Below, piece after piece: positions 5,885-13,685 of a stretch of DNA of 64,000 bases. Under the pieces are notes generated by a model. It ran no database searches. It had not been told where the DNA came from and worked only from the letters and a program-made list of their open reading frames with translations. This stretch comes from Cyclobacteriaceae bacterium (GTDB lineage Bacteria > Bacteroidota > Bacteroidia > Cytophagales > Cyclobacteriaceae). The position numbers and the translations under genes are program-made. The stretch spans positions 1 through 64,000 of the forward strand of contig JAEUTZ010000017.1 of NCBI GenBank assembly GCA_016787725.1. Direction: 5' to 3'. Position 1 is the stretch's first letter, and each line of letters starts with the position of its first letter.

Positions 5885-6461
5885 TGTGCCAGTTCATAAA
5901 ACCCCCATTTCATGTCTAATTCAAGGAATTGCTTGAACGGAATGTTCAGCGTTGCTAATCAAATGTTCATTAACGGACGAGTTAAATCAAAAGGAGAGAA
6001 TAAGCGACAAGGCCGCACACACATGGCCTGGCCGCGGATCCAGTACGCAACCAAATCAGACAATAAGTGTATTAAGCGCAGTGTGGTTGGACAAAGTAGA
6101 AATGAAAAATGCCCACCGCGCAACTGAATAATAAGGGACGTATAACACTTAAGCAGATAAGGCTACGAAAGAAGTTTGGGCAGGGCCCTGCCAAAAAAGT
6201 TTTTGCTATGTAGGGGGTCGGTGTGGCATTTTGGTTTGTGTTTCATATCATGTATCCTCACGTTTGACAGGGTAGAACTGGTCGGGACTTGTTATGCTAC
6301 CCATTTAGCAAGCCCTCCTATACCCTGCATTCCACAAGCACCAACGTTATGGCCAAGGCGCAAGAAATATTGACTGGCACAGAAATAAAATCAATTGATT
6401 TGAGAACTACTGACATACGGTTGACAGTCAACACGGCTTAGTTTATAAAAAATTAAATCGT
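5885..6461. other. Gene-poor stretch, no convincing coding sequence
   Basis: No ORF here resembles a protein. The 60-70 codon frames at 5912-6127 and 6176-6373 have no domain, no plausible ribosome site and odd composition. The stretch contains a perfect 14-base palindrome GGCAGGGCCCTGCC (6179-6192) flanked by TTT and AAA, and the sequence CACCAACGTTATGG near 6340, of a kind often found between acquired cassettes in Bacteroidota. The promoter of the following lipoprotein gene should lie at its right end. Confidence 0.4.
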
Positions 6462-6863
6462 ATGAAAGTAAACTTGGTGACACTGACATTAGTGACAATT
6501 ATGGGACTCTCTGGCTGTGAAAGCCAAAAAACGAGAGGCAGTTTTGTAAAGGGGCAAATTATAGAGTATGCCCCAATAGTATTGAAAGAGAGCGTAACAG
6601 AAGAAATTCTCTTAAACTCATCAAATGTGCTTCAGAGAGACTTTTTGACAAAGCAACAGGGCTTCATTAAACGTATTCTAGTTAAAAAATCTGACAGGGA
6701 ATATGTAGATATAGTCATATGGGACAGTAAAGAAAATGCTGACAAAGCAGTCGAACACTCCATGCAAAGTAAGGCTTGTGAAGATTACTTTAATTGTATG
6801 AAAAATTCAGAGGCCAGTGACGTTTTACACTTTGAAGTATTAGCAGAATACGGCAATAGATAG
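6462..6863 (+). CDS. Small lipoprotein of unknown function, possible dimeric alpha-beta barrel fold
   Basis: A 133-residue protein with a lipoprotein signal peptide: MKVNLVTLTLVTIMGLSGC ends in the lipobox LSGC, so Cys19 would be lipidated. The remainder has a pattern met in antibiotic-biosynthesis-monooxygenase-like (ABM) domains: a strand, a helix with FLTKQQGFIKR, then VDIVIWDSKENADKAVEHS and a final strand. This fold assignment is tentative. The gene stands alone between noncoding stretches, consistent with a single-gene cassette. Confidence 0.6.
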   Translation: MKVNLVTLTLVTIMGLSGCESQKTRGSFVKGQIIEYAPIVLKESVTEEILLNSSNVLQRDFLTKQQGFIKRILVKKSDREYVDIVIWDSKENADKAVEHSMQSKACEDYFNCMKNSEASDVLHFEVLAEYGNR

Positions 6864-7156
6864 AACTGTAATAACGGACAGGTTAGCAAAGGACTTAGGG
6901 GAGGAAGAAGAAGAGGAGAGTTTTAAGTTGAGTGAAAGGCGCCCAACCCGCAACAAAATATTTATGCAATGCAGGATGTTAGGTAGTAAGACTTATTTCT
7001 TAATTTAGTTCAGTATCGGGGGACAGAGACGTGCAGGTCGGGCTAAACCTTTCGACTTGCATCAACAATTCTAACCTCCCCTTTATCATCATTGTAATAA
7101 TTTTCTAATTGCTTTTATTCTTTTGCAGAAGGTGTGAAATTGTGGATAAGTTAAAC
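6864..7156. other. Noncoding junction between cassette and IS110 remnant
   Basis: No gene is visible. After the lipoprotein stop there is GCCCAAC (6941-6947) and GTTAGGT (6978-6984), which fit the RYYYAAC and GTTRRRY boxes of integron attC sites, but the 44-base span is shorter than usual attC sites and the inner arms pair poorly. From roughly 7080 onward the sequence probably belongs to the left end of the IS110-family element whose RNA-like region and transposase start follow. Confidence 0.3.
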
Positions 7157-7297
7157 ACCGGCAGGGGCGTATCATGGGCTTGACCAGGTTTTCAGACCTA
7201 GGGAATGATTCGATCCCCTTCCGGTTTTTCTGAACAGGCACCGTATAGAAATGAAGGCTCAAAGCCTCTTATCAAGGTTTTGGTTGAGTTCAGAAAA
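7157..7297 (+). ncRNA. Bridge-RNA-like structured region of an IS110-family element
   Basis: Two adjacent units with the same architecture can be folded by eye. Unit 1: ACCGGcAGGGG (7157-7167) pairs with CCCCTtCCGGT (7215-7225), enclosing an 18-base left loop, hairpin AGGT/ACCT (7186-7199) and a 15-base right loop. Unit 2: TTTTCTGAAC (7226-7235) pairs perfectly with GTTCAGAAAA (7288-7297), enclosing a 19-base left loop, hairpin AGGCT/AGCCT (7255-7267) and a 20-base right loop. IS110-group elements encode a bridge RNA in the noncoding end upstream of the transposase, with a target-binding and a donor-binding loop of this kind, and an IS110-type start codon lies 50 bases downstream. Transcription is not shown. 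Confidence 0.5.
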
Positions 7298-7346
7298 TGT
7301 TTAACGAAAATCGATTCGTAAACCTAAAACAAAATGCAATAGACTC

Positions 7347-7439
7347 ATGAAATATTTCATCGGAGCGGATGTATCAAAAATGGCGCTTGACCTATGCGTG
7401 ATTGGTGGCGAAAGTCAGACAGTAAGCCGAACCGGATAG
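7347..7439 (+). pseudogene. IS110-family transposase, N-terminal remnant
   Basis: The frame encodes MKYFIGADVSKMALDLCVIG and stops after 30 codons. The MKYFIGxDVSK opening, with the first acidic residue of the DEDD RuvC-like catalytic set (Asp8), is typical of IS110-family transposases, which are normally 300-400 residues long. Homology appears to end near residue 21, after which the sequence passes directly into the upstream region of the next gene. The transposase is therefore dead, although its 5' noncoding end is retained. It is on the plus strand. Confidence 0.7.
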
Positions 7440-7448
7440 ACTGACAAT

Positions 7449-8708
7449 ATGAAAATAGTGTATACGCTTATAATGACTTTATGGATTCTTGACGGAATGG
7501 GGCAAGACCTTGACTTGAAAAAGCGTTATTCTTTTGCCAAGTCATACTTCGGAATCGACTTGAACTACTTTTATAACCTGCAATCAAGCTCATTTTTAAA
7601 CCAACAAAATGAGATTCAATCCTTTGAAAGAAGTAATTTTATTTCCCCGTCCATTAACTTTGGAGCCACCCATTTTTGGGGACACGCTGACTTTTTTGTG
7701 TCAATCGCCACTTCATCAAGGAAAGCGAAGGCTGATGAATTAGACAATTCGATTAGATTTAGAGCGATAACCGGTATGCGTATTTTTCCGATGGCAATTA
7801 AAGAAAACACGTTGCGTCCGTACCTAAGCTATAAATTTGCTCCGATAAGGCTTAACCAAAGTAATTTACAGGGGGAGAATTACAGAAAAACTGAAGTAAA
7901 ATCAATTTTCGGAGCAGGGATAGCTTACCAAACATCTAAAATTTATACGCATTTAGGCTATGAACTGATTCCAAACAATCAAACTTCTATTTATCTGTCA
8001 AGAAGTCAAACAGCTACATCAGCATTTCCGAAAGGCTTGGTTAGTTTTGGTATAAACTATACAATAGAATTTACAAACGGTTCTTATTCAAGCCCGATTC
8101 CTCAACTTGACTCTATACTGCGAAGTAAAAACACATTGGGTTGGTTCTTTGGTATCGGCCCCTCTTCGGCTTTTCCTGTAAAAAGTTCAACCTATATAAC
8201 AGAACTTTATCCCTTTTTAGACGATAAAGGAATGCCAAATGTTTTTCCAGAAATTACAGCAGGCTACCATTTTTCAAAGCACGAGTTTATAGTCTCTGCC
8301 AATTTCCGACCCATCAAACAAGAGAGAAATGCCTTTTCATTCAATCAAAAGCTTATCAGAAACAGTCTTGGTTTAGAAGCCTACAAGTTTCTATTTGACT
8401 ATCACGGGTTCGCACCTTTTGTTGGTGCAAGTATTATGTATGATAATATTAAACTTGTTGAAACAGATAATACAACCAAGTTGACGGATGAACGCTTCAC
8501 TTTCATAAGTCCGTCTTTAATTTTTGGTTGGGACATTAGGCCGGGCAAACGGGCTGACATTTGGTTATTAAGGACTAACTTAAGATACTCGCCACTCTTG
8601 GAGATTAACAAAAACTCAAAAAAAATAAGTTTACAATATTTAGAGTTCAATTTTATTCAGGCCGTAATTTATCCGCAGAGAATTAAGAAATATAAAGAAT
8701 TGCGGTAG
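7449..8708 (+). CDS. Secreted protein, probable outer-membrane beta-barrel
   Basis: A 419-residue protein with an N-terminal signal peptide (MKIVYTLIMTLWILDGMGQ). It is rich in aromatic and alternating hydrophobic segments such as FGIDLNYFYNL, FKFLFDYHGFAPFVG and NLRYSPLLEI, the pattern of transmembrane beta-strands, with two halves that look related (both contain GWxFGxG or similar glycine turns). It ends YPQRIKKYKELR rather than with an aromatic residue, so the barrel assignment is uncertain. No family is recognised. It starts only 9 bases after the IS110 remnant, so its original promoter may have been replaced. Confidence 0.6.
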   Translation: MKIVYTLIMTLWILDGMGQDLDLKKRYSFAKSYFGIDLNYFYNLQSSSFLNQQNEIQSFERSNFISPSINFGATHFWGHADFFVSIATSSRKAKADELDNSIRFRAITGMRIFPMAIKENTLRPYLSYKFAPIRLNQSNLQGENYRKTEVKSIFGAGIAYQTSKIYTHLGYELIPNNQTSIYLSRSQTATSAFPKGLVSFGINYTIEFTNGSYSSPIPQLDSILRSKNTLGWFFGIGPSSAFPVKSSTYITELYPFLDDKGMPNVFPEITAGYHFSKHEFIVSANFRPIKQERNAFSFNQKLIRNSLGLEAYKFLFDYHGFAPFVGASIMYDNIKLVETDNTTKLTDERFTFISPSLIFGWDIRPGKRADIWLLRTNLRYSPLLEINKNSKKISLQYLEFNFIQAVIYPQRIKKYKELR

Positions 8709-8791
8709 TTAACAGCGGCTTGGCGTAATGGGGGCGTACGTTCTTCAGAGGACAATAATCAGAGCGCAATTCTGGTTGAAACGTAAAAAGT

Positions 8792-10287: not shown

Positions 10288-10656
10288 TCATATTGTGAAA
10301 TGTGGAAGGTTTAGTGCAGATAATAAAAGTATTTTCTTAATTTAGATCGGTAACATTGTACAGTTTGAAAATGGTCGCGCTAATCATTCCGTTAACCTTT
10401 ATTTTTTACCGCGCCTTTTCCGCACACTCCATAAACACCAACGATGGCAGTAATAGAGCCTGGACAATTTGGCCATCTCACTAGACACGTCACTAATAAC
10501 GATTTAGATGGGGTCAAGTGAACGGCATTTCATATAAAAACCAGCCATTAAGAGTATAAACAATTAGAAACTTCTAGTATTTTCAAACTTCTAGAATGCA
10601 TGGGTGTTAATAACCAGAGGTCCATTTTGCATGAAGAATTTGTTTTAAAAAACTGA
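10288..10656. other. Noncoding region upstream of the DUF1254 gene pair
   Basis: No gene is visible. The sequence includes TTTTCTTAATTTAG (10330-10343), which also occurs with one change near 6990-7003, and CACCAACGATGG near 10440, both of which resemble other spacers in this accessory region. The 10-base direct repeat at 10568-10594 lies at the right end, close to the start of the following lipoprotein gene. Confidence 0.35.
10568..10594 (+). promoter_or_regulatory. 10-base direct repeat upstream of the DUF1254 gene
   Basis: AAACTTCTAG occurs at 10568-10577 and again at 10585-10594, 17 bases from start to start, ending 62 bases before the ATG. Tandem half-sites at less than two helix turns are common for response-regulator or activator binding. 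No promoter consensus could be placed with confidence next to it, so the role is inference. Confidence 0.35.
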
Positions 10657-13424: not shown

Positions 13425-13685
13425 AGTCCGGGTAATCCGCAATAAATTGAGAAGGGAGTATAACTTTAATGTGCGACAAAGAAACATCTGGAAGTGAAAT
13501 GAGGTACAGGCCTTATTACTGCCAACAGCATGTTTCTGCAAGGTGCCGTACGAGTTGAATTAAAGTCTTATCTTCATTCAGCGTTTTTGGTTCGTGAGAA
13601 TGGATACTGCTACAGAAGAACACCACTACAGAAGAAAAATTGTGTAATAAGATTGTACGACAACTATAATACTTATTGAATAACC

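What the first reader, a model, noticed from the sequence alone, without database searches (positions are those of the whole stretch)
7140..7446. Orphan bridge-RNA-like element at the end of a broken IS110 transposon
Seen: upstream of an IS110-type start (MKYFIGADVSK) that breaks off within 30 codons there are two back-to-back RNA-like units. Unit 1 closes with ACCGGcAGGGG / CCCCTtCCGGT and unit 2 with a perfect 10-bp stem TTTTCTGAAC / GTTCAGAAAA. Each holds a left loop, a small apical hairpin and a right loop of 15-20 bases. Established: IS110-group elements encode a bridge RNA in the noncoding end before the transposase, with a target-binding and a donor-binding loop of this architecture. 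Inference: the RNA survived while the transposase was lost, leaving an orphan guide that an IS110 transposase elsewhere could use. The pentamer CGTAT occurs in the left loops of both units.
Basis: partly seen in the sequence, partly recalled or inferred. Interest (0 to 1): 0.82.

Follow-up and report, generated by a model that had tools for sequence, protein, structure and literature searches.

The report
Bridge-RNA remnant in an integron site
A genuine guide RNA left over from a broken jumping gene sits inside a gene-capture site of a Bacteroidota bacterium, and the guide still spells the sequence of that site; the jumping enzyme was not found in this genome, so the remnant is probably inactive.

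Summary
A covariance model from 12 IS110 left ends of other bacteria, none known to be of the window's genus, finds 7156-7300 and nothing else in the window: 116.4 bits, E = 8.4e-23. In those 12, 25 of 29 pairs show changes on both sides. Unit 1 is the target-binding loop, unit 2 the donor-binding loop.

The element is a truncated IS110 (IS621-like, RNA upstream of the gene): left end from about 7049, break near 7440, start codon lost, frame broken, right end gone. G962 of the same genus has an intact copy; a copy in G961 has one frame break.

The new part is the target: the middle of an integron attC site (left half kept, 6926-7048). Guide 7176-7185 matches flank 7040-7049 at 8 of 10. All six copies of this lineage with a readable left end join the same attC position. 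Two other IS110 groups of the genus sit at two other attC positions with matching guides.

The orphan-guide inference is weak here: no IS110 recombinase domain and no second bridge RNA were found in the 27-contig assembly. Most likely a decaying remnant.

The parts
6190..6349 (+). attC-like site 1 of a small cassette array (decayed)
   Evidence: nhmmer profile of relatives' sites without the window, 61.2 bits, E = 2.1e-18
6462..6863 (+). cassette gene between two attC-like sites, 133-aa putative lipoprotein
   Evidence: ORF; no Pfam match over cut-off; lipoprotein reading by eye
6926..7048 (+). left half of attC-like site 2, cut by the IS110 insertion
   Evidence: 85.6 bits, E = 7.5e-26 (hit 6926-7060); the same boundary in the insertions of L142 and L172
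7040..7049 (+). left target (LT) GGGCTAAACC at the insertion point
   Evidence: 8 of 10 identical to guide 7176-7185; most empty sites of relatives read like GGGCTWAAC|ATTYCGC
7049..7346 (+). IS110 left end (LE), non-coding
   Evidence: alignment to L075 starts at 7048; 82-86% identical to G961/G962 copies
7156..7300 (+). bridge RNA core (both units)
   Evidence: cmsearch 113.7 bits, E = 1.1e-24; 116.4 bits, E = 8.4e-23 with a model free of sequences known to be of the genus
7157..7225 (+). unit 1, target-binding loop
   Evidence: position and covariation; guides match attC
7176..7185 (+). left target guide (LTG) GGGCTTGACC
7202..7211 (+). right target guide region GGAATGATTC; its reverse complement GAATCATTCC fits the right junctions AAATC|ATTTCGC (L142) and AAATC|ATTCCGC (L172)
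   Evidence: the right half of the site is lost in the window, so not testable there
7226..7297 (+). unit 2, donor-binding loop
   Evidence: perfect 10-bp closing stem; helices 4-5
7241..7252 (+). left donor guide CCGTATAGAAAT, shares ATAGAAAT with the right end of the G961/G962 copies
   Evidence: L142 and L172 right ends read GTCATAGAAATC
7269..7277 (+). right donor guide region TTATCAAGG (assigned by analogy to IS621)
   Evidence: conserved in homologues; pairing to CCTTTAG inferred by eye
7347..7440 (+). 5' fragment of the IS110 recombinase gene, start codon lost and frame broken; homology to other copies ends about here
7449..8708 (+). 419-aa ORF that begins about 10 bp after the break
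   Evidence: ORF; no Pfam match at E <= 0.1
10294..10447 (+). attC-like site 3
   Evidence: 84.7 bits, E = 1.3e-25

Best explanation
Remnant of an IS110-group insertion sequence whose bridge RNA is programmed for the middle of an integron attC site. Shown by sequence: the RNA, its guides, the attC-like target, the loss of the right end and of most of the recombinase gene. Inferred: an intact ancestor, as a circle, was brought by its bridge RNA to GGTCGGGCT(W)AAC|ATTYCGC in an attC of a cassette array, recombined there, and later everything right of about 7440 was lost together with the right half of the attC. Two things follow, both inferred: that attC can no longer work as a folded recombination site, and the RNA left behind has no recombinase to load it in this genome, so it is decaying rather than working.
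For: CM hits: E = 1.1e-24 with 13 training sequences, one of which (L075) turned out to lie in the same genus; E = 8.4e-23 with the 12 others. Covariation: 28 of 30 pairs with changes on both sides in 15 homologues, two or three of them same-genus (0 of 500 shuffles reach this, 1 of 500 for the pair-type measure; lost when slid by 1 column); 25 of 29 pairs in the 12. Same element at 80-86% identity in G961/G962, with a full-length ORF in L142 that matches PF01548 and PF02371. All 6 copies of this lineage with a readable left end (window, L142, L143, L169, L170, L171) join the same attC position. LTG vs LT 8/10; 23 of 63,990 window 10-mers match the guide that well, the guide and LT included. 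Across 38 elements LTG-LT identity averages 5.9/10 against 3.4 shuffled, 0 of 20,000. attC identity: cassette-end rule, 21 of 25 consecutive pairs at 8-9 of 9, mean 8.04 against 6.14 within a site, 0 of 20,000 permutations. No IS110 domain found in the genome.
Against: In the window only the left junction can be tested: right end and right target are gone. Two of ten LTG positions differ from LT (guide T for flank A, guide G for flank A; the second would be a G-T wobble). The bridge RNA is closer to the relatives (131 of 145 to L142) than the coding fragment is (65 of 81); that may reflect time before truncation or some remaining constraint. The window's three main attC-like sites are decayed, and its one testable cassette pair fails the cassette-end rule (5 of 9). 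Integrase-like genes that would go with the arrays score below the family cut-off.
Confidence: 0.9

Rival explanations
1. A working orphan guide: the RNA is still made and a related IS110 recombinase arriving from outside uses it in trans on attC sites.
For: Most modelled pairs still form in the window. Cis and trans supply of the RNA both work experimentally for IS621 (PMC11208160, passages) and ISEc21 (PMC11187229, passages). Copies of the lineage exist in the genus.
Against: No recombinase domain found in the genome. For IS621 the promoter forms across the joined ends of the circle, and the right end is lost here; promoter-like matches are near chance level (2 found, 1.7 expected).
Confidence: 0.06
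2. A small non-autonomous (MITE-like) element that kept both ends and the guide RNA and lost only the enzyme.
For: CCGGATAGA at 7432-7440 resembles the left donor guide CCGTATAGAAAT and lies at the break.
Against: In L142 the aligned stretch is coding sequence, and right ends of L142 and L172 read GTCATAGAAATC followed by ATTYCGC, which does not follow here. A search for ATAGAAATCATTCCC with up to 3 mismatches in the window gave 4 hits, 3.2 expected, none near the element.
Confidence: 0.01
3. The hairpins are chance or belong to the attC fold, not to a bridge RNA.
For: Single-sequence folding z-scores are modest.
Against: CM E = 1.1e-24 and 8.4e-23; covariation; the hairpins lie outside the attC profile match.
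Confidence: 0.005
4. The truncation is an assembly artefact and the strain carries a whole element.
For: 27-contig draft; multi-copy IS often break assemblies.
Against: The fragment lies inside a 247,722-base contig, about 7 kb from its start; no other piece of 7100-7460 is found in the genome; two other right-truncated copies with different breakpoints exist in G961 (L170, L171).
Confidence: 0.03

Closest known systems
IS621 and IS110-group bridge RNAs (Durrant et al. 2024, PMC11208160; abstract, sections 5, 6, 7, 12, 20, first part of section 43 and passages read)
   Same: RNA in the left end before a DEDD recombinase gene; two hairpins with internal loops; left guide written like the top strand of the left target, right guide complementary to the right top strand.
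   Different: Target is an integron attC; the shared core appears, by eye, to be a single C (left AAC|CTTTAG, right AAATC|ATTYCGC) and not CT; the recombinase gene is truncated in the window.
IS1111 elements that target attC (ISKpn4, ISPst6, ISPa25; passages of PMC11187229 read; Tetu and Holmes 2008 and Post and Hall 2009 seen only as references)
   Same: A guide RNA directs a DEDD recombinase to attC sites of gene cassettes.
   Different: Those carry the RNA downstream of the gene and target one end of attC. Here the RNA is upstream and the window's lineage targets the middle; only the group L194, L199, L202 targets an attC end.
Integron attC sites and cassette arrays (definition recalled)
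   Same: Head-to-tail sites separated by genes; imperfect inverted repeat; cassette-end rule met in relatives.
   Different: About 180 bp long; the recombinases near some arrays score below the TIGR02249 cut-off and skip its profile positions about 180-240.

Membership tests
IS110-group bridge RNA | lies upstream of a DEDD IS110 recombinase gene | tested here: met
   followed by the N-terminal codons of an IS110 gene; the intact relative L142 matches PF01548 and PF02371; the 30-aa fragment itself has no Pfam match
IS110-group bridge RNA | two hairpins with internal guide loops, conserved by covariation | tested here: met
IS110-group bridge RNA | target guides match the insertion site | tested here: met
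   left 8/10 in the window; both sides in L142 and L172; right side untestable in the window
IS110-group bridge RNA | donor guides match the element ends | tested here: inconclusive
   left donor guide shares 8 nt with the right end of L142 and L172; the window has no right end; right donor guide only by eye
IS110-group bridge RNA | RNA is transcribed and bound by the recombinase | not testable with these tools
   needs RNA-seq and a binding assay
complete IS110 element | intact recombinase and both ends | tested here: not met
IS1111-attC elements | guide RNA downstream of the gene and target at one attC end | tested here: not met
   RNA upstream; insertion between attC profile positions 135 and 136 of 201 (L143)
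integron attC | head-to-tail array of alike sites | tested here: met
   8 sites in L173 and 7 in L172, one site of each split by the IS; 3 in the window plus one weak match
integron attC | right end of site n complementary to left end of site n+1 (same cassette) | tested here: met
   21 of 25 pairs in relatives and window together; not met for the one testable pair of the window
integron attC | integron integrase beside an array | tested here: inconclusive
   an integrase-like gene lies near sites in L177, L180 and G164:C1, none near it in L161, L178, L179, L181, L182; all below the TIGR02249 cut-off, and the same search also rings weakly in 14 of 14 control genomes

The most novel reading that the evidence does not exclude
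The attC sites of the integrons of this Bacteroidota genus are a standing niche for IS110 elements: at least three groups with different bridge RNAs have each been written for a different segment of the same attC (middle; crossover end; right arm), and truncation repeatedly leaves orphan bridge RNAs in the arrays that a passing relative's recombinase could use in trans on many attC targets.
Probability: 0.5. Interest if true: 0.65.

Novelty: new variant of a known kind. Interest (0 to 1): 0.5.

Why it matters
It shows a natural bridge RNA addressed to integron attC sites from the IS110 side, with the RNA upstream of the gene, next to the known IS1111 elements that target attC ends. Three groups that picked different stretches of one repeat give a natural series for learning how bridge-RNA guides change target. 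An IS in the middle of attC should also stop the cassette from moving (inference), so these elements may shape integron arrays. The orphan itself is an ordinary remnant.

Tried and rejected
Rejected: (1) internal deletion keeping the right end (CCGGATAGA near 7432), because relatives show coding sequence there. (2) A first guess that the left end starts at 7080; the alignment with L075 and the G961/G962 copies put it at 7048/7049. (3) Short DNA hits L003, L004, L036, L037: 33-59 bp of the query; L003 and L004 were read and judged by eye to be unrelated; L036 and L037 were not read. (4) The CGTAT pentamer as a shared signal.

Led nowhere: plasmid collection, no match; phage collection, one 25-bp match at E = 7e-3; tblastn of the 30-aa fragment on plasmids, 28 records at E of about 1 or more; degenerate pattern in genome contigs, 0; promoter scan near chance.

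Limits: searches in family, order and class were even samples and missed G961, G962 and G983, which came with the genus sample. The search for related loci kept the best 80 of 417 relatives. One search used 50 of the 77 aligned rows (those typed into the script); 12 of the 50 were dropped for lack of a usable left-end motif, and several of the 38 kept probably use a wrong motif; L142, L143, L170 and the window are not among the 38. In one search only pairs with both ends readable were counted (25 pairs among 52 sites). In one search the gene motif could miss divergent genes (L196). The pattern search for empty targets in the own genome is near its control (5 places against 3 for the reversed pattern). 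No tree was built; the three IS110 groups are told apart by their protein starts, guides and sites.

Full report
WHAT IS THERE. Window 7049 to about 7440 is the left part of an IS110 insertion sequence. Single-sequence folding supports them only modestly (z -1.8 for the whole, -2.0 and -2.4 for the units), so I collected homologues. IS110 genes were found in 102 of 246 same-family genomes (E <= 0.001), three more came from a class search of 395 genomes, and 80 loci (the best of 417) from GTDB contigs. Of 10 upstream regions folded, at least 7 show, by eye, the same two-unit RNA just before the gene.

THE RNA. From 15 homologous RNAs, window excluded, RNAalifold predicts 30 pairs, 28 of them with changes on both sides. 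Counted on the MAFFT alignment, 92.4% of cells pair against 74.0% in shuffles, the covariation score is 0.583 against 0.241, and the signal collapses when partners are slid by one column. A covariance model from 13 of these (L142 and L143 left out) finds exactly one place in the window: 7156-7300, 113.7 bits, E = 1.1e-24. The 13-sequence model matches in 72 of 79 sources that I chose from the loci held, its 13 training loci among them (77 matches at E <= 0.01). Rfam release 15 gives no match at its cut-offs.

THE SOURCE ELEMENT. In a genus sample of 59 genomes the same left end occurs in G962 and G961 at about 80-86% identity. L142 (G962) is whole: a recombinase ORF with PF01548 and PF02371, left junction GGGCTTAAC|CTTTAGACTTG, right junction GTCATAGAAATC|ATTTCGCTGCGC. 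L172 (G961) is whole in DNA, but its gene is in two frames. L170 and L171 (G961) are cut on the right at other points, and L171 keeps only unit 1; L169 (G962) ends with its contig. The window copy has lost the start codon used by its relatives, has its frame broken, and has lost everything right of about 7440. Same-genus G983 contig 72 has the length and match of DEIA01000016.1, Flammeovirgaceae bacterium UBA2786, so I infer that the host is a relative of that Bacteroidota; no call names it.

THE TARGET IS attC. A repeat of about 180 bp, of which window 6926-7048 is the left half, occurs across the genus: 26 of 59 genomes, the own one included, match the query 6400-8750, mostly in this stretch. 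In most uninterrupted copies aligned, the place where the window is cut reads like GGGCTWAAC|ATTYCGC. The repeats stand head to tail, 8 in L173 and 7 in L172, counting each IS-split site once. The end of one site is complementary to the start of the next rather than to its own start: 21 of 25 consecutive pairs match at 8 or 9 of 9 positions (15 at 9, 6 at 8, 4 at 5 or fewer), mean 8.04, against 6.14 within sites (35 sites) and 5.66 for all against all; 0 of 20,000 permutations. This is what integron cassettes predict. In the window, sites lie at 6190-6349, 6926-7048 (cut) and 10294-10447, with a weak one at 13496-13579; its one testable pair fails the rule (5 of 9). One more full site lies at about C4:64.9 kb of the same genome (120.6 bits), found through a pattern search that is otherwise near its control (5 places against 3). 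Integrase-like genes lie near sites in 3 of 8 places looked at (L177, L180, G164:C1; not L161, L178, L179, L181, L182), all below the TIGR02249 cut-off, and that search rings weakly in all 59 genomes and all 14 controls.

GUIDES. The left target guide GGGCTTGACC (7176-7185) matches flank GGGCTAAACC (7040-7049) at 8 of 10; 23 of 63,990 10-mers of the window match as well or better, guide and flank included. The right guide reads GAATCATTCC in reverse complement, and L142 and L172 continue AAATC|ATTTCGC and AAATC|ATTCCGC. Over 38 elements with a recognisable left end the guide-flank identity is 5.9 of 10 against 3.4 when shuffled. Left guide against left flank in the other copies, read by eye: L142 10/10, L143 9/10, L170 9/10, L171 8/10.

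OTHER GROUPS. The 13-sequence model finds 15 bridge RNAs in 10 of 59 genus genomes, one of them the window, which is the only one in its genome (stricter filters that lose weak matches). Nine are followed by an IS110 frame of 297 or more residues after the motif; six are not (window 25, L198 37, L200 74, L189 262, and L196 and L201 without the motif). L194, L199 and L202 are another group, inserted at CCGCCAAC|GTTT next to the attC crossover end and in the opposite orientation; left guide GCCGCCAAC against flanks ACCGCCAAC (L194, L199) and GCCGCCAAC (L202), right guide rc ATCGTTTG against ATCGTTTA (L194) and ATCGTTTG (L199, L202). L197 is a third, in the right arm: guide CGCCACTGCC against flank CGCCACTGCT, right guide rc TTCTTATG against TTCTTATG (all by eye). 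So three groups use three parts of attC. L193 has attC-like matches nearby that I did not examine; L188, L192, L195, L196 and L200 showed none at E <= 0.01.

MECHANISM. Shown by sequence: RNA, guides, target, loss of right end and most of the gene. Inferred from IS621 (PMC11208160): a circular element, loaded with this RNA, recombined with attC. Inferred: later deletion took the right part of the IS and the right half of attC. In this genome PF01548 and PF02371 have no match, so the orphan has no partner in the assembly held.

LITERATURE. IS1111 elements that target one end of attC through their guide RNA are known (PMC11187229, passages). 'bridge RNA' with 'attC' gave one paper, PMC11208160, where the passages shown have attC only in a reference entry. 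'IS110' with 'attC sites' and 'integron' gave 11 papers, of which I read passages of PMC11187229 only. 'bridge RNA', 'IS110' and 'non-autonomous' gave none. This is a partial library, so absence is weak evidence.

VERDICT. The attC target and the three groups are the part of interest.

Noticed in passing
L161:1156-2352 (own genome C4:295.6-296.4 kb); L177, L180, L181: Integrase-like tyrosine recombinases of about 390-450 aa (stop to stop) score 193-231 bits to TIGR02249 (cut-off 265) and skip profile positions about 180-240; L177 and L180 (and G164:C1) lie near attC-like sites. The skipped part may hold the patch typical of IntI (recalled).
   Followed up: partly
L194, L199, L202: A second IS110 group sits at the crossover end of attC with near-perfect guides, an IS110-side analogue of the attC-targeting IS1111 elements.
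   Followed up: partly
L197 (G987:C20): A third IS110 group sits in the right arm of attC with matching guides.
   Followed up: partly
L171:2526-2760 (G961:C7): A left end cut right after unit 1 and followed by a strong hairpin, with genes on the other strand beyond it; looks like the end of a cassette array.
   Followed up: no
window 7437-7449: The break lies just before the start of the 419-aa gene, and GACAATATG resembles the cassette leaders (..RCAAT..) seen after attC ends in relatives, without the GTT; the junction might be a former cassette boundary.
   Followed up: no
G000:C4:64.9 kb (L183): A full attC-like site (120.6 bits) with a near-intact empty target elsewhere in the same genome.
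   Followed up: partly
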